The notes under the pieces: generated by a model
Told to the model about the DNA's origin: nothing
The model's database searches: none
The model's input: the letters and a program-made list of their open reading frames with translations, nothing else
Shown: positions 24,585 through 31,376 of the stretch, one piece after another
Numbering within the stretch: the stretch's first letter is position 1
Layout: the number at the start of each line of letters is the position of its first letter
Translations under genes and position numbers: made by a program
NCBI GenBank assembly: GCA_017616655.1
Contig: JAFZXU010000007.1
Location: forward strand, 1 to 35,227
Source of the DNA: Bacteroidales bacterium
GTDB taxonomy: Bacteria > Bacteroidota > Bacteroidia > Bacteroidales > UBA932
DNA length: 35,227 bases
Direction of reading: 5' to 3'

Positions 24585-24893
24585 GCCCGGGTGGTGAAAT
24601 TGGTAGACACGCGGGACTTAAACTAATTTGAGTGCATTCTCCGAAAGGAGAAATGTAGAATATCGTAAAGTCAGGGAAGCCTTAACGGACGACGCCGATG
24701 GTAATCCTGAGCCAAGCCTCGAAGGAGGAAGGTGCAGAGACTATACACGATACACCTAAGTAGAAATATATGGTGAAGAGATAGTCCGGACCACAAAAGT
24801 CAAAGCTATGGTTTTGATTGTAACGAAAGTTATAGTGGTGTGAAAATCCCGTGGCCAGGAATGGCCTTACGGGTTCGATTCCCGTCCCGGGCA
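24585..24893 (+). tRNA. tRNA-Leu(UAA) interrupted by a group I intron
   Basis: The 5' exon (24585-24619) starts GCCCGGGTGGTGAAATTGG and ends in the anticodon loop C-T-T. The 3' exon (24843-24893) starts AAAATCCCG. Joined, they give a class II tRNA: acceptor GCCCGGG/CCCGGGC, anticodon stem CGGGA/TCCCG, loop CTTAAAA with anticodon TAA, a long variable arm (GGCC AGGAAT GGCC) and a T-arm ACGGG-TTCGATT-CCCGT. CCA is not encoded. The 3' end also serves as attL of the mobile element, so the element restored the tRNA sequence on insertion. The tRNA reads UUA codons and should need splicing to work. Confidence 0.93.
24620..24842 (+). ncRNA. Group I intron (IC3-like), 223 nt, no ORF
   Basis: The 5' exon ACTT plus the first intron bases AAA pair perfectly with TTTGAGT (24627-24633) around a CTAA loop to form P1. 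The last exon base U34 forms the diagnostic U.G pair with G24630. Core elements are readable: Q region AATCCTGAGCC, R region GGTGCAGAGACTAT and S region GATAGTCC, whose ACTAT/ATAGT pairing is P7 (guanosine site). GNRA-type hairpins are at TCTCCGAAAGGAGA and TAACGAAAGTTA. The intron ends in G (omega-G, 24842) before AAAATCCC. Insertion between U34 and A35 is the same site as the cyanobacterial/plastid tRNA-Leu(UAA) intron. Confidence 0.92.
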
Positions 24894-24896
24894 CAA
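24874..24896 (+). repeat. attL core (tRNA 3' end)
   Basis: 23 bp identical to 30748-30770. Bases before it differ (ACGGG here, AATCA there) and bases after it differ, which sets the limits of the crossover core. Confidence 0.9.
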
Positions 24897-25205
24897 CGAC
24901 AAGACACTAATTCTTTGAAAATCAAAGAGTTGGTGTTTTTCTTTTGGGAAAATTCCCGACTTTTTCCCGAGATAGGCCGATTTTTATGCAAAAACCCCCG
25001 CCAAATCTCTCAATCTGGCCGGGGTCACAAATGATTCTTGTTGCAGAGCAACACCACAAAGATAACTATTTTTTCATAAACCTCCTAAAGCAACCGCCTC
25101 GCATCCTTTGCAGATTCTGCCACGATCCGAGAGTTTAGCGAAAATGTAGCGAATATACCCTCACGGCTTTGTCGTGGCTTTGTCGCAAAATAGTCGCAAA
25201 AGCAT
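24897..25205. other. Left end of the element: arm-type motifs and short repeats, no gene
   Basis: Three motifs are shared in direct orientation with the right end: AATTCTTTGAAA (24909-24920), TTCCCGACTT (24953-24962) and TTTTTCCCGAGAT (24961-24973). Their right-end copies are at 30653-30664, 30617-30626 and 30603-30615. These are likely integrase arm sites. Closer to dnaB are GGCTTTGTCG twice (25165-25174, 25176-25185) and GTCGCAAAA twice (25182-25190, 25193-25201), perhaps protein-binding sites. No coding sequence is convincing here. Confidence 0.6.
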
Positions 25206-26552
25206 TTACCCGTCAAGTCCGGATCGCTCGGAGAAAACCGTAAACCCTCTCCGGGTGTCCCCGACTAAATCTATACAAATCCCGGTTCTGCCGTTACGAT
25301 TCTTTCGCACCCATAAATCTACATTCGGGTCTTTTAGGTCGTTGCCGTTATGCCTACAAAGCATCAAGACAATATCGGCATCTTGTTCGATACTCCCGGA
25401 GTCACGCAAATCTCGCAGCTCAGGAGGCCGCCCCTCTGCATCCGACAATCTGTTTAACTGACAGAGAACAACAATCGGTATTCCGCAATCCATCGCAAGA
25501 GTCTTGAATCTCCGTGTTCGCTCCGTGAGAACTTGATAAGCCGTGAGCCTGGAATTGGTGTCGGATATGATATGCAAATGGTCAACAAATGCAATCGAAC
25601 ACCGCCCCCTCTGGTGCTGCAACATAATATCGTTGCAGATTTCATCCATAGTCCTCAACCTGGTGTTAAACCACAACGGCAAACCATCAAAGATATTGCA
25701 GGCCCGTTGCAATTTCTCCATATCCATCGCTTGCACGGCTGCATCGTTCGCAATATCCGATTGCCTAACCACACCCGTTGACAAAACGAGCCGTTGCCCT
25801 AGATCCCTATTCGGCATCTCTAGAGAATAGACCGTTGCGGGAAATCCTTTGCGACTCGCCTCAACCGCCATTTGTAGCATAACGGCAGATTTACCCACAG
25901 AGGGCCGGGCCGCTAGTATTGTAAGACTCCCGTTTGACCATCCTCCGATTATTGTTTCATCTAGATTGTGAAAGCCCGTAGGAATCTTCGAAATCATTCC
26001 GTTCGCTTGATTTTGCAGAGCAAAGGAATAGTCGAACAATACATCTTTCACGGCCTGGGTTGTTGCCCTCGTTCTGGTCTTGCTTGACAGATCCTCCAAC
26101 AGTTCCCCCGGCATAGAAATAACCCGCCCGTAATCGCTGCCGGGGTCGCTTGATTTCAGTAAGATTTCATAGGCTCGGGAGAATATGAATCTTCGTGTTG
26201 CCATCTCTGCCAGAGCTGCGAAATGGTCCCGTATCTGTGTATCCGTATAGCCGGGCTCAAGCCTGACAAACTCAGTAAAAGAGGCCGTGTCAATCTTGGG
26301 TTGTACGGTTGAAAGGTCAATCGTGTCACCCTTGTCAAACATATCGTTGAGGACTGTCCAGATTTTCCGGTATTCCTCAACCGTGAACATCGAAGAGTCC
26401 AGACCGTTGCGGGCTATTGTCAAGAGTCCCGGAGTGTAGATTAAATCTATCAGCACCTGACTCTCTAGCCGCCTGGTGTCGGGCATATTCAGTCCCTCCA
26501 CATTGAGGGGTTGTTGCTTGTTGTATTGATATCCTCTCATATCGTAATTCAT
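25206..26552 (-). CDS. DnaB-type replicative helicase of the element
   Basis: A DnaB-family hexameric helicase of about 448 residues. The N-terminal DnaB domain (RRLESQVLIDLIYTPG...FTVEEYRKIWTVLNDMFDKG) precedes the RecA-like domain with Walker A AARPSVGKSA (about residues 214-223), Walker B-type IAFVDHLHII, the VLCQLNRLSD motif H3/H4, and RKNRNGRTG with the arginine finger. It would unwind the element's DNA after initiation. The start is uncertain: the frame opens with an ATG at 26603 that overlaps a small peptide frame, and ATGs at 26552 and 26540 fit the DnaB N-terminus better. Codons differ from the GC-rich host genes, consistent with transfer. Confidence 0.88.
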   Translation of the reverse strand: MNYDMRGYQYNKQQPLNVEGLNMPDTRRLESQVLIDLIYTPGLLTIARNGLDSSMFTVEEYRKIWTVLNDMFDKGDTIDLSTVQPKIDTASFTEFVRLEPGYTDTQIRDHFAALAEMATRRFIFSRAYEILLKSSDPGSDYGRVISMPGELLEDLSSKTRTRATTQAVKDVLFDYSFALQNQANGMISKIPTGFHNLDETIIGGWSNGSLTILAARPSVGKSAVMLQMAVEASRKGFPATVYSLEMPNRDLGQRLVLSTGVVRQSDIANDAAVQAMDMEKLQRACNIFDGLPLWFNTRLRTMDEICNDIMLQHQRGRCSIAFVDHLHIISDTNSRLTAYQVLTERTRRFKTLAMDCGIPIVVLCQLNRLSDAEGRPPELRDLRDSGSIEQDADIVLMLCRHNGNDLKDPNVDLWVRKNRNGRTGICIDLVGDTRRGFTVFSERSGLDG

Positions 26553-26578
26553 ATCGTAAAACTTGTAAACTCTCGCTG

Positions 26579-26710
26579 CTATTGCCGCTGCAAAAACGAA
26601 CATTTTGCCGTTAATTTGCCGTAAACCAAGTCGCTAACCAAGTCGCAAAACCGGGTTGCATATTGTAATTCATATTGCAATCTTATGTCGTTAACCAAGT
26701 CGTTAATCAT
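26579..26710 (-). CDS. Possible 43-residue peptide between DUF6291 and dnaB genes
   Basis: Starts MINDLVNDIRLQYELQ with its ATG overlapping the DUF6291 stop and ends TAKCSFLQRQ. NDLV/SDLV recurs because the DNA carries AACCAAGTCG three times (26624-26633, 26636-26645, 26693-26702) and TTTGCCGT-type repeats. It may be a genuine coupled peptide, or the frame may be an accident of an iteron-like region. Not recognised. Confidence 0.3.
   Translation of the reverse strand: MINDLVNDIRLQYELQYATRFCDLVSDLVYGKLTAKCSFLQRQ
26624..26702. repeat. Short direct repeats AACCAAGTCG upstream of dnaB
   Basis: Three exact copies of AACCAAGTCG at 26624-26633, 26636-26645 and 26693-26702. TTTGCCGTTAA / TTTGCCGTAAA-type repeats adjoin. 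The stretch is AT-rich and sits between a primosomal-type gene and the helicase gene, a common position for a replication origin. Origin function is inference. Confidence 0.5.
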
Positions 26711-27404
26711 CGTAACCGTAGTGGTGTGAATCATCCTCTTCGGAGAGTTTAGACGGGTGTGACTTTTGCCATCTTTGGTATCGATCCGGAGTGTTGTCGT
26801 ATTCGATCCCTTGATAGTTCTTTTCAATGGCCTCGTTCATCAAAATAATGGCAAAATCTACATCGTACCCTTTCAGTTTATCAAGACTCTTTTGCAGAGC
26901 GGAGTCGGTCTTTTTCCTCCACTTTGGTTGCTGCCTCAACTCGTTCCAGGTCTTGACAAATTCGGAGTTATCAGGATACGGGAGAATCAAAGATTGTCCC
27001 CCGCTTTTGCGGGACTTACTAACCTTTTCATTCTCATTTTCATTCTCATTATCATTATGGCCCCCGTTCGGTTTTTCCGAAACCATTCGGTTTTCTTGAA
27101 ACCGTTCGGTTTTCTTTGGTCTGCCTCCGAGTTTGCCATTGGCGGCATTGATTCCGCATTTCTTGTCATATTTCTCGTTATCATATTTGAATTGATTAAC
27201 TAGAAACTTGAAAGCGATTATTATATCCCTCTCCGGCTCCGGCCAATATAGACCATCCCCGGGCTCCGAGCTTTCCGCAATCTGCCATTGGAACAAATGC
27301 CGAAACAATCGGCCGAGTTGTTCATTTGAGAGATCCGAGATTGGCTCAAATTGCGACTTGTAAAGCACGAAACTATCTCGGTCTTTGTGTGGCTCTCGTT
27401 TCAT
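26703..27404 (-). CDS. DUF6291 protein, probable replication initiator/helicase-loader-like
   Basis: A 233-residue protein. Residues 10-45 (DSFVLYKSQFEPISDLSNEQLGRLFRHLFQWQIAES) match the DUF6291 N-terminal domain found in phage and mobile-element replication proteins. A charged, Asn/Glu-rich linker (NDNENENENEKVSKSRKSG) and a C-terminal domain (FVKTWNELRQQPKWRKKTDSALQKSLDKLKGYDVDFAIILMNEAIEKNYQGI) resemble the DnaD/phage replisome organiser layout. The ending HYGYDD is acidic. Being directly upstream of a DnaB helicase gene fits a role in origin binding or helicase loading. Domain call fairly sure; role inferred. Confidence 0.75.
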   Translation of the reverse strand: MKREPHKDRDSFVLYKSQFEPISDLSNEQLGRLFRHLFQWQIAESSEPGDGLYWPEPERDIIIAFKFLVNQFKYDNEKYDKKCGINAANGKLGGRPKKTERFQENRMVSEKPNGGHNDNENENENEKVSKSRKSGGQSLILPYPDNSEFVKTWNELRQQPKWRKKTDSALQKSLDKLKGYDVDFAIILMNEAIEKNYQGIEYDNTPDRYQRWQKSHPSKLSEEDDSHHYGYDD

Positions 27405-27646
27405 TGTCCGACCTCCTCATCAATGATTTTTTTGCACCGCCTCCAGGAGCCCTCCAGGTGTCCCGGAACGGATATGCCGCCATCGTTATAACGGCTTTGA
27501 ATATAGGACTTGATTGCACCCCAAAGGGCAAACACATCATCAACGGGCATCGTTGACCATTCCCGCTTAACCAGATTGACACAGTATGCCAAAGCCATCG
27601 CCTCGTTCATTTCAACGAGCCCGATTCTTACGGTTATCTTTCTCAT
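27401..27646 (-). CDS. 81-residue element protein of unknown function
   Basis: Starts MRKITVRIGLVEMNEAMALAYCVNLVKREW and ends CKKIIDEEVGQ. It appears soluble and helical, with no recognised motif. Both ends overlap neighbours by four bases (ATGA), with the HTH gene upstream and DUF6291 downstream, so it is a real member of the replication operon. In similar elements such small proteins regulate or assist initiation; that is inference. Confidence 0.65.
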   Translation of the reverse strand: MRKITVRIGLVEMNEAMALAYCVNLVKREWSTMPVDDVFALWGAIKSYIQSRYNDGGISVPGHLEGSWRRCKKIIDEEVGQ

Positions 27647-27945
27647 ATCTCACCCTCCAAAATCTTATCAATATCTGTGGAACGATAACGGTTTTCGCCT
27701 CCGACTTTGACGGGTACAAGATACCCGCTTTTCTGCCATCGCCATAGTGTTGACGGAGCAACGGATAATTTCTCTAGCACGGCATCCCTAGTTAGGTATG
27801 TAATGGCCCGTTTCTCTGCGATTTCTCGCTCCAGGTCCAAGCGGACTTTGTTTATCAACCTGGTGTTGGCCTCAACTAGATCCTCGGCCCTGACTGCAAT
27901 AATGGTCCCGGGGCACTCCCGAGCAAGTTCAATGATATTTGTCAT
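27643..27945 (-). CDS. Helix-turn-helix DNA-binding protein (excisionase/MerR-like)
   Basis: A 100-residue protein whose C-terminal half is a winged HTH of the excisionase family: YLTRDAVLEKLSVAPSTLWRWQKSGYLVPVKVGGENRYRSTDIDKIL. The N-terminal half is charged and helical (IIAVRAEDLVEANTRLINKVRLDLEREIAEKRAI). Proteins of this shape in Bacteroidales elements control excision or repress early promoters. It is the first gene of the replication operon, downstream of a candidate -7 element at 28052-28059. Confidence 0.8.
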   Translation of the reverse strand: MTNIIELARECPGTIIAVRAEDLVEANTRLINKVRLDLEREIAEKRAITYLTRDAVLEKLSVAPSTLWRWQKSGYLVPVKVGGENRYRSTDIDKILEGEI

Positions 27946-28085
27946 TGTCTTTATGTTTTACTGTTGAGGTCCTCAGCCCCGACCGTCAATCGGATCGGCT
28001 CACCTCTTGACCGCCCTGAGCGGGTGACGGATTACCGCTCAAACGGTGTTACAAAGGTACGGTGTGCCCATCGGCTAGAATGGCG
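27946..28085 (-). promoter_or_regulatory. Control region of the element's replication operon
   Basis: TACCTTTG on the minus strand (plus 28052-28059) is a good -7 box about 110 bases upstream of the HTH gene start. The intervening GC-rich leader holds inverted repeats such as ACCGC-CCTGA-GCGGG (about 28009-28024). It may be an HTH-protein operator or a long 5' UTR. Confidence 0.4.
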
Positions 28086-28108
28086 AAAAAAGGGCCCTCA
28101 ATGGGCCC
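28086..28108 (-). terminator. Terminator 2 on minus strand
   Basis: GGGCCC-ATTGA-GGGCCC followed by six T, read on the minus strand. Confidence 0.75.
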
Positions 28109-28110
28109 AC

Positions 28111-28137
28111 AAAAAAGGCCCGGCTCTATGCCAGGCC
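28111..28137 (-). terminator. Terminator 1 on minus strand
   Basis: GGCCTGGC-ATAGA-GCCGGGCC followed by six T, read on the minus strand. With the next one it makes tandem terminators insulating the integration half of the element from the replication operon. Confidence 0.8.
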
Positions 28138-28161
28138 ATCCCGCTCAAAGTCGGTTTTATA

Positions 28162-28824
28162 TTAGACTTTTTTAATCGGTCTATGATAGGCTTTTTTTAA
28201 TTGTTTCTTTGTCACCGGGCTCCCGTTTTTTGTAAAGAGTTCATCGGCATATCTCCAGGGAGAATTAAAAGTGTTGGGCTCAAACTCTGCGAGTCTATTA
28301 TCTACGAATCTCGCCAAATCCTGAATGGTCCCATTCCACTCAAAAGGAGGGGTTATGTCACCGTTTTCGATTGCCTCGTTATACTTGGGATTTTCAATGA
28401 GAGAACGCACGAAAGCCGGGTAGTATTTTACGGGTGAAATTGGTATCCGCTCCACAATATCACGGAGCCTATCAAATAGACCGTTTAAGCCCTTAAAACC
28501 CTCGTGTTCTATTGGAGTGTTTGTAGTAGATAAAAATAACTGTTGAGCTTGTGAAAGATCCGATATTGTGCGTGGTGCCAGATTCTTTGAATCGGTCGTA
28601 TAATCATTCACCGCCTCGGTCGCTAGTTCAATGGCACGGTCAATCCCTTTGCTTACCCGGTGAACAAACAAATAAGGATTGATCCCGGCAATATGGCCCA
28701 TTATAGTTTTGGGCTCATCCTCTCCGTGTACTATTGTAACCCTCGGGGCATCCCTTAGCAAGTTAGCCGCTTTGGTCAGCCGTTCGAGCGACTTTGTGAG
28801 ATTGTCGTAGTCGGTGTTTTTCAT
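28162..28824 (-). CDS. Unrecognised element protein, 220 aa
   Basis: Starts MKNTDYDNLTKSLERLTKAANLLRDAPRVTIVHGEDEP and ends KQLKKAYHRPIKKV. It seems soluble, mostly helical, with a basic C-terminus that could bind nucleic acid. WRYADELFTKNGSPVTKKQLKKAY resembles endings of phage or transposon accessory proteins, but no family was recognised. Its ATG overlaps the stop of the upstream 78-residue gene. Placed between integrase and the replication operon, it could be a cargo gene (for example phage interference) or a regulator; neither can be shown. An upstream in-frame ATG at 28875 is less likely. Confidence 0.65.
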   Translation of the reverse strand: MKNTDYDNLTKSLERLTKAANLLRDAPRVTIVHGEDEPKTIMGHIAGINPYLFVHRVSKGIDRAIELATEAVNDYTTDSKNLAPRTISDLSQAQQLFLSTTNTPIEHEGFKGLNGLFDRLRDIVERIPISPVKYYPAFVRSLIENPKYNEAIENGDITPPFEWNGTIQDLARFVDNRLAEFEPNTFNSPWRYADELFTKNGSPVTKKQLKKAYHRPIKKV

Positions 28825-29057
28825 ATCAGTTCCCCCGGATTGGTTGAGGTTGCCCAAAACCTTACATTGTCGCAAATCGCTTTTTCGATAATCCTCCCGG
28901 CTGCATCAAAGGCCGCATTGTCGGACTCGCTCAGCGGGTTTTCATCCTCGTTAACGATTGCAAGATAGTAGTTCTCCCGAGCTGCCTCAACAGCTCTCAA
29001 AGCCATCAACAGATTGGCCGTTTTAGGGCCGATTTTGAAAGAGTTCTCGTTGCTCAT
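28821..29057 (-). CDS. Unrecognised small element protein, 78 aa
   Basis: Starts MSNENSFKIGPKTANLLMALRAVEAARENYYLA and ends WATSTNPGELI. Helical, acidic, no signal or membrane segment. It is coupled by an ATGA overlap to the 220-residue gene. A start at 29069 is also possible. The six 11-bp iterons (29113-29178) lie just upstream, so it may be controlled from there. Confidence 0.6.
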   Translation of the reverse strand: MSNENSFKIGPKTANLLMALRAVEAARENYYLAIVNEDENPLSESDNAAFDAAGRIIEKAICDNVRFWATSTNPGELI

Positions 29058-29112
29058 AGTGTGAATCATTTATGTCGTAAATTCATAATTTTTGCCGAGA
29101 TTTTGCCTTTTC

Positions 29113-29178
29113 TTCCGCAGCGATTCCGCAGCGATTCCGCAAAGGTTACGCAAAGGTTACGCAAAGGTTACGCAAAAC
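29113..29178. repeat. Six tandem 11-bp iterons
   Basis: Contiguous units: TTCCGCAGCGA twice, TTCCGCAAAGG once, TTACGCAAAGG twice and TTACGCAAAAC once. All share TTnCGCA. They lie between the integrase stop (29194) and the next start (29057). No spacers, so not CRISPR. Likely binding sites for an element protein: excision, origin or operator. Confidence 0.85.
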
Positions 29179-29193
29179 ATTTTCGGGGTCGGA

Positions 29194-30570
29194 TTATTCA
29201 AGCATTGAAACAAGTTCTTTCCTCATTTCCTCATCAATGTCACGGTATCTCGCAAATGCCTTAGATCCCTCGGTGTGTCCTGACAATTTGCCTATCAAAT
29301 TCGGGTCTTTGACTTGCTTGTATAGGTTGCCAATAAAACACCTCCGGGCTAGGTGGGAACTTGCAACCTCGTTCAACGGTCGTTTCTCCTCCTCCCTGGT
29401 AGTCGGGTTGAGGATCGTGACCATCCGAGTCAATCCGCAGAGCTTGAAAAACTCTTTGATTGCATAGTTGTAGTTCTGGTCGGATATGCACGGCAATAGC
29501 ATTTTGCCGGGTGTATCCTTGTACCGTTCCAGGATCTCCCGAGCAACGGAGTTGAGGGGCACTCGGACCGTTACGGGGTGACCGTCTTTTGTCTTTCTCG
29601 GAATGTATTCAACCGCTCCGTCAATAACCGATCCTTTGGTGAGATTTCTAAGGTCGGACACCCTGCATCCGATAACGCATTGAAACACGAAGATATCTCG
29701 TTGAATTGCAAGTTGAGGTCGGTCGCTCAGGTCGTATTCAAACAGTCGGTTTCGCTCTTCGATTGTGATATAGTACGGAGTGCCATAGAGGGGTTGAGGT
29801 CCTGAGAAATTGCGAAACGGGTTGTTGCTTGTTATCCCCTGGTTGACCGCCCAGAGAAAGAAAGACCGAAAATGTTTCACAAACTCGCAGATTGCATTCT
29901 GTCCTCGCTCAGCGGGCAGCCTAGATTCTGGCACGGCTTGAAACGCATCCTTGTATCGGCTATCAAGAAACTCAACCCGCTTATTGCCCTCCCGGTCGGT
30001 GGTCGTTTCAATGTAGGTGTGTTCCTCGTTCAAAAAATCCACATATTCCCCGATTATTTCCCCGCTGACCTCATCAATGGAAAGAGTTAACCCGTAACCC
30101 TTATAAAGCAAAAACCGCTTAAATGCCCGATAATTCACCAAATGGTGACTAATGTTCGACACGGAGGTTTTTCGCTCATCAATGAATCTCTTTAGCACAT
30201 CCAACACGGCCCGAGATTTCTCGCTCCCGGGAAAGTTGTATTGTTTTATGAGGTCCTGCAGCCAGGCAGCCTCGATCCCCTTTTTGCCCGCTCCGGCCTC
30301 AATGAATGAATCGTTGATTAGTTTCTTGACCCGCTCCAACTTTGCGTTGACATCGGTGAGTTCGCTTGTAAGCCGTTTCGCATCGGGGCTCATAACTCGC
30401 ACCCTGGGAATGGTCACCCGCTCCCGGTCTGCATTCCAATACTGAGGTTGAACGAAGATATTCGTTTTTGCGTATTGGTCTATTTTGCCGTGAAAGAATC
30501 GAACTAGAATCTCGCTGAGTCCGGTGGCCCGGTCGCATTTGCTAGAGAGTCGGAATTTTACTGTTGCCAT
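29194..30570 (-). CDS. int: Tyrosine recombinase (site-specific integrase)
   Basis: A 458-residue phage/Bacteroides-element integrase. An N-terminal arm-binding domain is followed by a SAM-like core-binding domain (FIDERKTSVSNISHHLVNYRAFKRFLLYKGYGLTL, ~130-165) and the catalytic domain. The full active site is present: Arg303 (GCRVSDLRNL), Lys in RKTKDG (~328), His406-x-x-Arg409 (SSHLARR), His432 (LSGHTEG) and nucleophile Tyr442 (FARYRD). It lies nearest attR and its promoter faces away from the att site. It should catalyse insertion into and excision from the 23-bp tRNA-Leu core. Nothing suggests inactivation. Confidence 0.95.
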   Translation of the reverse strand: MATVKFRLSSKCDRATGLSEILVRFFHGKIDQYAKTNIFVQPQYWNADRERVTIPRVRVMSPDAKRLTSELTDVNAKLERVKKLINDSFIEAGAGKKGIEAAWLQDLIKQYNFPGSEKSRAVLDVLKRFIDERKTSVSNISHHLVNYRAFKRFLLYKGYGLTLSIDEVSGEIIGEYVDFLNEEHTYIETTTDREGNKRVEFLDSRYKDAFQAVPESRLPAERGQNAICEFVKHFRSFFLWAVNQGITSNNPFRNFSGPQPLYGTPYYITIEERNRLFEYDLSDRPQLAIQRDIFVFQCVIGCRVSDLRNLTKGSVIDGAVEYIPRKTKDGHPVTVRVPLNSVAREILERYKDTPGKMLLPCISDQNYNYAIKEFFKLCGLTRMVTILNPTTREEEKRPLNEVASSHLARRCFIGNLYKQVKDPNLIGKLSGHTEGSKAFARYRDIDEEMRKELVSMLE

Positions 30571-30590
30571 ACTAGAATCATTTGTTGAAA

Positions 30591-30598
30591 CAAAGATA
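30591..30598 (-). promoter_or_regulatory. -7 element of the integrase promoter
   Basis: TATCTTTG on the minus strand, 20 bases before the ATG at 30570. It lies next to the arm-type motif at 30603-30615, so integrase bound there could repress its own gene. Confidence 0.5.
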
Positions 30599-30602
30599 GT
30601 AA

Positions 30603-30664
30603 TTTTTCCCGAGATTTTCCCGACTTACTCGGGAATTTATGAAATTATTTGCAATTCTTTGAAA
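30603..30664. other. Right-end arm-type motifs
   Basis: TTTTTCCCGAGAT (30603-30615), TTCCCGACTT (30617-30626) and AATTCTTTGAAA (30653-30664) all recur near attL in the same orientation. CTCGGGAA (30629-30636) is the inverse of TTCCCGAG. Candidate integrase arm sites. Confidence 0.55.
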
Positions 30665-30747
30665 TTTGCCGCCTCAACACAAAACGCAATATAAGATTAT
30701 AGAAATGGGCTTTTTCGGCACTCTGTCAACATTTGCGATTGCAATCA

Positions 30748-30770
30748 TTCGATTCCCGTCCCGGGCACAA
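30748..30770 (+). repeat. attR core (displaced tRNA 3' end)
   Basis: Second copy of the 23-bp core. It carries only the last part of the T-arm and acceptor strand, with no tRNA upstream of it, so it is a displaced tail, not a tRNA gene. Confidence 0.9.
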
Positions 30771-30804
30771 AAAATAGCGGCATTCCGCCGCTATTTTTGT
30801 GCCC
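30763..30804 (+). terminator. Original tRNA-Leu terminator hairpin, displaced by the insertion
   Basis: GGGCACAAAAAATAGCGG pairs with CCGCTATTTTTGTGCCC; the shorter hairpin AAATAGCGG / CCGCTATTT plus TTTTT is at 30771-30798. It joins directly to the tRNA tail, showing that it was the terminator of the uninterrupted tRNA gene. Confidence 0.7.
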
Positions 30805-30883
30805 TTTGGGCACCTGTTTAAACGGGGGATACCTCCCCCGCACCCCGCGTGCTTCGCACGGTTTTTCGTGCCGGGACGGGAAT
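30799..30883. other. Cluster of GC-rich hairpins and an inverted partial tRNA 3' end
   Basis: Hairpins GTGCCC-TTT-GGGCAC (30799-30813), CGGGGG-ATACCT-CCCCCG (30823-30840) and CGTGC-TTC-GCACG with GTTTTT (30848-30866) follow each other. GTGCCGGGACGGGAAT (30868-30883) is, in reverse, the att/tRNA acceptor sequence lacking one G. The stretch lies between the tRNA terminator and the HNH gene and looks like the border of an inserted unit. Confidence 0.55.
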
Positions 30884-30902: not shown

Positions 30903-31376
30903 ATGAAAAGGCATCATTATTCGAAAGAAGAAGTAGAGAAGGCTGTGGCAGAGAATAAGTCATATGCCGGAGTACTCAGGCAGTTTGGTTTAAGGCCTTC
31001 TGGAGCTAATTACCGAACAATTCACGATTTAATAGACAATTATTCTTTGGACACCTCACATTTTACCGGACAAGGATGGAATGTGAGTCAAGTCTTCAAA
31101 CCTCAAAAAGAATACTCTTTAGAAGAGATACTCATTGAGAATTCTCCATATCGTTGCAACAGGCGGCTAAAAACTCGTCTAATCAAAGTTGGTTTTAAGG
31201 AAAGAAAGTGCGAAAGATGTGGGTTAACGCAATGGCAAGGCAATGAGATTCCGCTGGAGATACATCATATCAACGGAAAGAATACTGACAATCGTTTGGC
31301 GAATCTTCAGTTCTTATGCCCTAATTGCCATGCGCTGACAGAGCATTATCGAGGTCAGGCCAAGAAAAGACGATAA
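30903..31376 (+). CDS. Free-standing HNH endonuclease
   Basis: A 157-residue protein. Residues 1-60 (HYSKEEVEKAVAENKSYAGVLRQFGLRPSGANYRTIHDLIDNYSLDTSHFTGQGW) are a small helix-turn-helix-like DNA-binding module seen in phage and bacterial HNH nucleases. The C-terminal ~50 residues have CERCGLTQWQG, LEIHHINGKNTDNRLANLQFLCPNCH, that is the HNH catalytic His-His/Asn/His with a four-Cys structural zinc. It probably cuts DNA as a homing-type nuclease. It lies outside the integrative element, about 110 bases past attR, so before insertion it was adjacent to the intron-containing tRNA-Leu. The start is the ATG after the -7 element. Confidence 0.85.
   Translation: MKRHHYSKEEVEKAVAENKSYAGVLRQFGLRPSGANYRTIHDLIDNYSLDTSHFTGQGWNVSQVFKPQKEYSLEEILIENSPYRCNRRLKTRLIKVGFKERKCERCGLTQWQGNEIPLEIHHINGKNTDNRLANLQFLCPNCHALTEHYRGQAKKRR

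What the first reader, a model, noticed from the sequence alone, without database searches (positions are those of the whole stretch)
24585..24893. Group I intron in tRNA-Leu(UAA) of a probable Bacteroidales
Seen: two tRNA-Leu exons flank 223 nt. The 5' splice site U34 sits in a perfect 7-bp P1 with a U.G pair, R/S elements form P7, and the intron ends in G. The site (U34/A35) is that of the cyanobacterial and plastid intron. Established: bacterial tRNA introns are known in cyanobacteria (tRNA-Leu and others), alpha-proteobacterial tRNA-Arg and Azoarcus tRNA-Ile. I do not recall tRNA-Leu introns being described from Bacteroidales. Inferred: either horizontal transfer or independent gain; the tRNA depends on splicing.
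Basis: partly seen in the sequence, partly recalled or inferred. Interest (0 to 1): 0.88.

Follow-up and report, generated by a model that had tools for sequence, protein, structure and literature searches.

The report
Mobile tRNA-leucine intron in gut Bacteroidales
A leucine tRNA gene of this gut bacterium is split by an intron of a self-splicing kind, and relatives of that intron carry a DNA-cutting enzyme gene and come and go at the same spot, so an intron best known from cyanobacteria and chloroplasts looks like a moving element here.

Summary
Window 24585-24893 is a tRNA-Leu(UAA) gene split after U34 by a 223-nt group I intron (Rfam RF00028, 59.1 bits, cut-off 50). No other UAA-anticodon Leu tRNA was found in the draft genome. 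The host is a Bacteroidales genome, by contig-length matching in the genus of Candidatus Cacconaster. The closest relative found has the same locus uninterrupted (84% DNA identity upstream). In the genus, 10 of 40 genomes carry the intron, 25 others the uninterrupted gene, none both. Of 108 distinct Leu-type introns, 28 hold an intact HNH homing-endonuclease-like gene in the P1 loop (median dN/dS 0.09), 16 are intermediate, 64 have none. Two intron pairs match at every aligned base and differ only by all or part of that gene. The window's intron lacks the gene, but an HNH relative stands about 130 bp beyond the displaced end of the tRNA gene, past a 5.9-kb integrative element. Best reading: a group I intron kept in circulation by homing. 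Splicing and DNA cutting are inferred, not shown. Transfer is supported; the donor is unresolved.

The parts
24585..24619 (+). 5' exon of tRNA-Leu(UAA), ends with U34
   Evidence: ARAGORN intron mode; junction fixed by P1 and by the empty site of G114
24620..24842 (+). 223-nt group I intron, ends in G
   Evidence: RF00028 59.1 bits; model R1 151.8 bits, the window being one of the training rows
24843..24893 (+). 3' exon of tRNA-Leu(UAA), begins with A35
   Evidence: 98% identical to the uninterrupted gene of G114
24616..24633 (+). P1: ACUUAAA (24616-24622) with UUUGAGU (24627-24633); U24619.G24630 at the splice site; UUU 24627-24629 could also pair with the 3' exon (P10, read by eye)
   Evidence: fold; sequence
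24661..24752 (+). Core: P3 24661-24666 with 24747-24752; P4 24670-24675 with 24706-24711; P5 and P6 between
   Evidence: alignment A1 and pair counts
24739..24786 (+). P7 GACUA 24739-24743 with UAGUC 24782-24786; P8 24753-24756 with 24772-24775
24874..24896 (+). Left copy of a 23-bp direct repeat made of the tRNA 3' end (attL-like)
25206..30570 (-). Cargo of an integrative element: DnaB-like helicase 25206-26603, DUF6291 protein 26703-27404, HTH_17 protein 27643-27945, unknown protein 28162-28875, tyrosine integrase 29194-30570
   Evidence: Pfam, PHROGs
30748..30770 (+). Right copy of the 23-bp repeat (attR-like); from here on the sequence matches what follows the tRNA gene in G114 (window 30748-30861, 89.6%)
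30903..31376 (+). Free-standing HNH endonuclease-like gene (start codon inferred), about 130 bp past the right repeat; relative of the intron-borne HNH genes
   Evidence: PF01844 E 9e-5; phrog_10822 E 2.9e-50; family search; tree

Best explanation
A group I intron of the bacterial tRNA kind sits after U34 of the only UAA-anticodon leucine tRNA gene found in this genome and most likely removes itself from the precursor by the usual two-step, guanosine-started reaction, so that the tRNA stays usable. In this family of gut Bacteroidales the intron is most likely kept in circulation by homing: an HNH endonuclease encoded in the P1 loop of full copies would cut intronless tRNA-Leu(UAA) alleles, and repair would copy the intron in. 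Copies then lose the endonuclease gene. The window holds such an endonuclease-free copy, with an HNH relative standing just beyond the tRNA gene. Shown by sequence: intron anatomy, exact empty sites, patchy presence, intact endonuclease genes under purifying selection, introns alike at every aligned base with and without the gene. Inferred: splicing, DNA cutting, homing, and the order of events.
For: Intron fold and exons. No other UAA-anticodon Leu tRNA found. Exact empty sites: G114 against the window, L224 against L032. In the genus 10 of 40 genomes with the intron, 25 of 40 with the uninterrupted gene, none with both, 5 with neither (Fisher p 3.5e-6). 28 of 108 distinct introns hold an intact P1-loop HNH gene; median dN/dS 0.089 over 11 pairs, maximum 0.21. 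L097/L113 and L166/L102 have no mismatch over 214 and 429 aligned bases and differ by 517 and 296 nt of the HNH region. 7 of 16 intermediate introns keep a detectable HNH remnant. In 199 family genomes 5 have an HNH match at E <= 1e-20: four lie in tRNA-Leu introns, the fifth is the window's.
Against: No RNA or enzyme data. The window's own intron has no endonuclease gene. dN/dS rests on 11 non-independent pairs. 6 of the 13 first-type intermediate introns show no detectable HNH remnant. The intron tree is poorly resolved (62 of 114 inner branches open), so transfer between named lineages is not shown by phylogeny. Gain and loss cannot be told apart from presence and absence alone. The protein search misses diverged copies (MurA in 9 of 40 genus genomes), so HNH absence elsewhere is unsure.
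Confidence: 0.8

Rival explanations
1. [quoted passage not shown] the HNH genes are leftovers and homing is no longer active.
For: The site is the same in the cyanobacterial and Bradyrhizobium introns. The locus is syntenic in intron-bearing and intronless genomes of the genus. Presence and absence cannot tell gain from loss.
Against: 28 of 30 introns of 600 nt or more have an intact HNH ORF, with dN/dS about 0.09, which a leftover would not keep. The intron occurs in 4 of 25 genera and 42 of 299 family genomes, one of the 42 being a 42-position fragment, so loss would have to be very frequent. Two intron types occupy the one site in genus g22.
Confidence: 0.14
2. Decayed or silent gene: the window's copy no longer splices, and UUA codons are read by a tRNA gene that lies in an assembly gap.
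For: The assembly is a draft (73 contigs, 93% complete, 4.6% contamination). The window's intron has a long end branch (0.37; highest identity 82% over 198 columns). One tRNA match has an unresolved anticodon (L177).
Against: Core helices hold and P3 and P4 changed by compensation. The exons give a good tRNA and match the uninterrupted gene of G114. No other UAA-anticodon Leu tRNA was found.
Confidence: 0.04
3. The free-standing HNH gene in the window has nothing to do with the intron; it is a common phage-type gene that landed there by chance.
For: HNH relatives are frequent in phages: 215 records, all under 60% identity. On the tree the window's gene lies outside the intron-borne clade (96/95). 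Its position is not matched in G114, which lacks it. Neither is it under tested selection.
Against: Of 5 family genomes with a match at E <= 1e-20, four have it inside tRNA-Leu introns. L106 also has a free-standing HNH gene 77 bp after its tRNA-Leu gene. L099 and L152 have copies next to the tRNA, attached to pieces of a second intron.
Confidence: 0.5

Closest known systems
[quoted passage not shown] subgroup IC3, recalled)
   Same: Same tRNA, same U34/A35 site, similar core; the cyanobacterial copy L219 was found by model R1
   Different: 72% identity over 166 bases with the window, common descent not settled; Bacteroidales copies often hold an HNH gene in the P1 loop, which I do not recall for the cyanobacterial tRNA-Leu intron
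tRNA-fMet intron of Synechocystis with endonuclease I-SspI
   Same: A bacterial tRNA intron in the anticodon loop with an ORF (a 150-codon ORF is mentioned in PMC5733544, passages; the title of the enzyme paper is in the reference list seen)
   Different: Other tRNA; that the ORF there is of another enzyme family is recalled, not checked
Free-standing homing endonucleases and collaborative homing (phages)
   Same: An endonuclease-like gene beside an intron-bearing gene; HNH falls in phrog_10822. The pathway is named in a figure legend of PMC3984707 (passages)
   Different: Chromosomal tRNA locus; cutting untested; best phage match 49% identical
tRNA-Leu(UAA) intron on Bradyrhizobium conjugative plasmids (L228)
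   Same: Same tRNA and site, no annotation
   Different: 69% identity over 188 bases; no HNH gene

Membership tests
Group I introns | Conserved core scored by a curated covariance model | tested here: met
   RF00028 59.1 bits, cut-off 50
Group I introns | P1 with U.G at the 5' splice site, P3 and P7 forming the core, terminal G | tested here: met
   Sequence, fold, pair counts with P3 and P7 written as a pseudoknot
Group I introns | Self-splicing with guanosine | not testable with these tools
   Needs RNA; no RNA data searched
tRNA-Leu(UAA) introns of the cyanobacterial/plastid type | Insertion after U34 of tRNA-Leu(UAA) | tested here: met
   same site in L219
tRNA-Leu(UAA) introns of the cyanobacterial/plastid type | Common descent with cyanobacterial tRNA-Leu introns | tested here: inconclusive
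   Tree unresolved, long branches
tRNA-Leu(UAA) introns of the cyanobacterial/plastid type | Subgroup IC3 | not tested
   No subgroup model at hand; likeness to the cyanobacterial core only
Mobile (homing) group I introns | Endonuclease gene in the intron | tested here: not met
   Not met in the window's copy (longest stop-free stretch 45 codons); met in 28 of 108 distinct relatives
Mobile (homing) group I introns | Exact intronless alleles in close relatives | tested here: met
   G114; L224 against L032; genus counts
Mobile (homing) group I introns | Endonuclease cuts the intronless allele | not testable with these tools
   Needs the protein and DNA
Collaborative homing by a free-standing endonuclease | Free-standing endonuclease gene next to the intron-bearing gene | tested here: met
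   Window 30903-31376 and L106
Collaborative homing by a free-standing endonuclease | That enzyme cuts near the intron site and moves the intron | not testable with these tools
   Needs the protein and DNA

The most novel reading that the evidence does not exclude
The tRNA-Leu(UAA) intron, best known as an old relic, is an actively homing element in gut Bacteroidales, with the whole cycle in view: empty sites, introns with a selected P1-loop HNH gene, introns with partly deleted HNH genes, bare introns, and HNH genes that stand beside the tRNA gene, as in the window, where such a gene may move the bare intron in trans. Two diverged intron types occupy the same anticodon site within one genus.
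Probability: 0.35. Interest if true: 0.78.

Novelty: new variant of a known kind. Interest (0 to 1): 0.62.

Why it matters
The tRNA-Leu(UAA) intron is a standard case in the debate on whether introns are old or mobile. Here are close relatives, in common gut bacteria, in which empty sites, full introns and introns with a decaying endonuclease gene can be compared base by base, and in which the homing step can be tested in vitro. It also means that annotation without an intron mode can miss a tRNA that the cell seems to need: ARAGORN in plain mode found no tRNA in the window.

Tried and rejected
False matches: of 14 family genomes that matched RF00028 at E <= 0.001, two (L043, L044; 28 and 24 bits) are not introns: they lie across the start of a protein-like reading frame and ARAGORN finds no tRNA there. 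I dropped them from all later counts.

Donor by tree: a quick tree of 121 rows left 62 of 114 inner branches open and joined long branches; I draw no donor from it. Endonuclease states are scattered on it (43 changes over all four groups); its starred branches force at least 8 changes for 'full', on a quick tree. For 'full' alone the labels are no more clustered than shuffled ones (26 changes, shuffled mean 25.4), as frequent change predicts, but an unresolved tree would give that too.

Host tree by MurA: the protein search found MurA in 9 of 40 genus genomes, so I used it only to name G114 as the closest relative found, and dropped the plan to count gains on a host tree.

Phage source of the intron: the core pattern in IMG/VR gave 4 contigs, in which the intron lies in a tmRNA-like gene by my reading, not in tRNA-Leu.

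Promoter in front of the HNH genes: TANNTTTG within 40 nt upstream in 10 of 29, shuffles mean 1.1, largest 4; consensus as given in PMC7366714 (passages). The sequences are related, 19 of 29 lack it, and for a few the start codon chosen is doubtful, so this is suggestive only.

The first HNH tree used a wrong frame for L099; I repeated it with the right frame. The G before the 3' exon and GACTT before the intron are forced by the search pattern and prove nothing. Solved-structure search with the HNH protein gave nothing useful (best E 0.29). The longer ORF readings 30849 and 30885 for the HNH gene were not excluded.

Full report
CHECK OF THE OBSERVATION. ARAGORN finds no tRNA in the window in plain mode; in intron mode it gives one, tRNA-Leu(taa), 24585-24894, with a 223-nt intron. 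The Rfam scan of the window gives one match at its curated cut-offs, RF00028 (group I intron), 59.1 bits, E 1e-12. The folded pre-tRNA shows P1 with 7 pairs, ACUUAAA with UUUGAGU, a U.G at the splice site, and z = -5.0. The intron ends in G24842. The UUU of the guide sequence could also pair with the AAA that opens the 3' exon (P10; read from the sequence). An alignment of 12 cores, 11 distinct, has 99.1% of cells paired over 32 pairs; 6 pairs changed on both sides, shuffled mean 2.0, 0 of 500 as high. P7 and P8 never vary and add nothing to this count.

THE HOST TRNA. The genome assembly (2.09 Mb, 73 contigs, 93.23% complete, 4.61% contaminated) has one RF00028 match and 33 tRNA-family matches, the split gene not among them. 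ARAGORN names the other Leu tRNAs as CAG, UAG, CAA and GAG; none has UAA. One match (L177) has an unresolved anticodon and one (L178) is below the cut-off and was not called. UUA codons thus seem to depend on the split gene, within the limits of a draft.

WHO THE HOST IS. Both G598 and G182 are in the window's genus. NCBI places Candidatus Cacconaster in Bacteroidales. The match by length is an inference.

EMPTY SITES. The closest relative found, G114 (MurA 92% identical), shares 84% DNA identity over 4.6 kb upstream, up to the tRNA gene. Its tRNA-Leu(UAA) is uninterrupted, and the alignment breaks exactly at 24619/24843. A second pair in the genus, L032 with and L224 without the intron, shows the same break with matching flanks. 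In the genus, an exact pattern for the uninterrupted gene is found in 25 of 40 genomes and in none of the 10 with the intron (Fisher p = 3.5e-6). Five of 40 show neither, which draft gaps or mismatches can explain. That all 40 were in the sample is inferred from their handles. The gene upstream of the tRNA in the window is also upstream in 7 intron-bearing loci (the window's included) and 5 intronless loci of the 17 genus loci compared.

HOW COMMON. A covariance model of the core (R1) matches 42 of 299 family genomes, 30 of 144 good ones, in 4 of 25 genera. Of the 42, five score 38-54 bits (the second type, below) and one is a match to 42 positions only. In the order sample 3 of 393 match, the window's genome included; the other two are introns that ARAGORN reads in tRNA-Ile (G450) and tRNA-Leu(taa) (G440). 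With Rfam's general model 14 of 199 family genomes matched, 10 over the cut-off; 2 of the 14 are false. Filters for large samples lose weak matches, so these are lower bounds. Of the 119, 101 have at least one tRNA-Leu(UAA)-type exon (91 both, 10 one); their record titles say Bacteroidales, Bacteroidia or a narrower name of that group, except one that says only 'Bacterium'. The other 18 come from non-Bacteroidota or unplaced records; ARAGORN reads 8 in tRNA-Arg, 4 in tRNA-Asn and 6 in other or odd contexts.

THE ENDONUCLEASE. In L039 and L040 the P1 loop holds a 215-aa ORF with an HNH motif. I collected 139 introns with both Leu-type exons, 108 of them distinct; the 108 include one cyanobacterial (L219) and one Bradyrhizobium (L228) intron. 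In-silico splicing gives tRNA-Leu(taa) in 132 of 139; in the other seven the 3' flank is cut off (20-46 bases). Of the 108, 28 have an intact HNH ORF, 16 are intermediate (260 nt or more without an intact ORF) and 64 have none; 28 of the 30 introns of 600 nt or more are intact. Of the 16, seven keep a detectable HNH remnant (L063, L071, L092, L093, L102, L105, L139), three are short introns of the second type and six first-type introns show none. Over 26 first-type ORFs, dN/dS has a median of 0.089 in the 11 pairs with dS 0.02-1.5 (maximum 0.21); over all pairs with differing silent sites the median pN/pS is 0.27, where silent sites are near saturation. The reading frame has no stops against 209 and 338 in the other two. 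In 25 of 28 intact ORFs the reading frame runs on into the ribozyme core, so the protein's tail would be encoded by ribozyme sequence. L097 and L113 have 214 aligned bases without a mismatch and differ by 517 nt; L166 and L102 have 429 without a mismatch and differ by 296 nt.

A SECOND INTRON TYPE. In genus g22 five genomes (G107, G177, G667, G674, G677) have a diverged intron at the same tRNA-Leu site. Rfam did not report it in the two loci scanned, L048 and L049, even at E 0.1. In G107 and G177 it holds an HNH gene that is 55% identical to the window's. Its guide sequence differs from TTGAGY, as do those of L175 and L135; 101 of 108 introns have TTGAGY. Its helices were not worked out.

THE WINDOW'S OWN HNH GENE. 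The window's intron has no stop-free stretch over 45 codons. An HNH gene lies at 30903-31376 (PF01844; phrog_10822). Between it and the tRNA lies an integrative element bounded by a 23-bp direct repeat of the tRNA's 3' end (24874-24896 and 30748-30770), with integrase, HTH, DUF6291 and DnaB-like helicase genes. G114 lacks the element; what follows its tRNA gene matches window 30748-30861 at 89.6%. Before integration the HNH gene thus stood about 130 bp past the tRNA gene. No HNH match was found in G114, an answer without a positive control. Of 199 family genomes, 5 have a match to this HNH at E <= 1e-20: two in first-type introns, two in second-type introns, and the window's own. L106 has a free-standing HNH gene 77 bp after its tRNA-Leu. 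L099 has an HNH gene after its tRNA, preceded by a second copy of the 5' exon end and intron start, and L152 a damaged HNH copy upstream, next to masked or unknown bases. On the HNH tree the window's gene lies outside the clade of first-type intron-borne genes (96/95), while L106 lies inside it (97/94), so HNH genes beside the tRNA arose more than once. The window's own place is unsure (its joining branch has 87/33).

MECHANISM. Shown by sequence: intron fold, exact empty sites, patchy presence, intact and selected endonuclease genes, and their presence or absence in introns alike at every aligned base. Inferred: self-splicing, cutting of intronless tRNA-Leu(UAA), homing by repair, and any role of the free-standing HNH. 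I put homing in this intron group at 0.8 and a role in trans for the window's HNH at about 0.3.

COMPARISON. By fold, tRNA and site it belongs with the tRNA-Leu(UAA) introns of cyanobacteria and plastids. Common descent is not settled: 72% over 166 bases with the cyanobacterial L219 and 69% over 188 with Bradyrhizobium L228. [quoted passage not shown] A review of bacterial group I introns (PMC3984707, passages), the tRNAscan-SE 2.0 paper (PMC8450103, passages) and the archaeal survey (PMC6125680, passages) have no word that begins with 'Bacteroid' in the main text held. PMC4476775 (passages) has no occurrence of 'endonuclease'. PMC7886860 (passages) reports many group I introns in crAss-like phages of Bacteroidetes, in protein genes in the passages seen. 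Searches for the combination returned nothing on tRNA-Leu introns of Bacteroidales in their listings (several listings were cut at 15-25 rows). Subscription papers are not covered, so first description is not claimed.

Noticed in passing
window 24874-30770: A 5.9-kb integrative element sits in the 3' end of the split tRNA gene, between 23-bp direct repeats; it is absent from the syntenic locus of G114.
   Followed up: partly
window 30868-30883: A 16-nt inverted, one-gap copy of the tRNA-Leu 3' end lies just before the HNH gene (score 13.5, 0 of 2000 shuffles as high, largest 13.0). Unexplained.
   Followed up: partly
L054, L083 (Pacearchaeota), L120 (Omnitrophota): tRNA-Asn(GUU) genes with related group I introns; L083 and L120 have HNH-like ORFs in the 5' part of the intron. 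The archaeal survey PMC6125680 lists rRNA sites in the passages seen. Contamination of the bins was not checked.
   Followed up: partly
L228 1501-1697 and surroundings: Bradyrhizobium sp. ISRA435 plasmid (and three sister records) has an unannotated tRNA-Leu(UAA) gene with a group I intron at the same site, on plasmids typed as conjugative.
   Followed up: partly
L050-L053 (IMG/VR): Four viral contigs have a related group I intron core in what looks like a tmRNA gene (read by eye).
   Followed up: no
L174 (G450) and L175 (G440): Other Bacteroidales families have related introns, read by ARAGORN in tRNA-Ile and in tRNA-Leu(taa).
   Followed up: no
L039 1024-1671 and other HNH-bearing introns: In 25 of 28 intact HNH ORFs the reading frame continues into the ribozyme core, so one stretch of DNA would serve both protein and ribozyme.
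   Followed up: partly
L099 7685 onward; L152 34-300: Pieces of a second, HNH-bearing intron lie next to an intact tRNA-Leu gene with a bare intron; possible by-products of recombination or assembly.
   Followed up: partly
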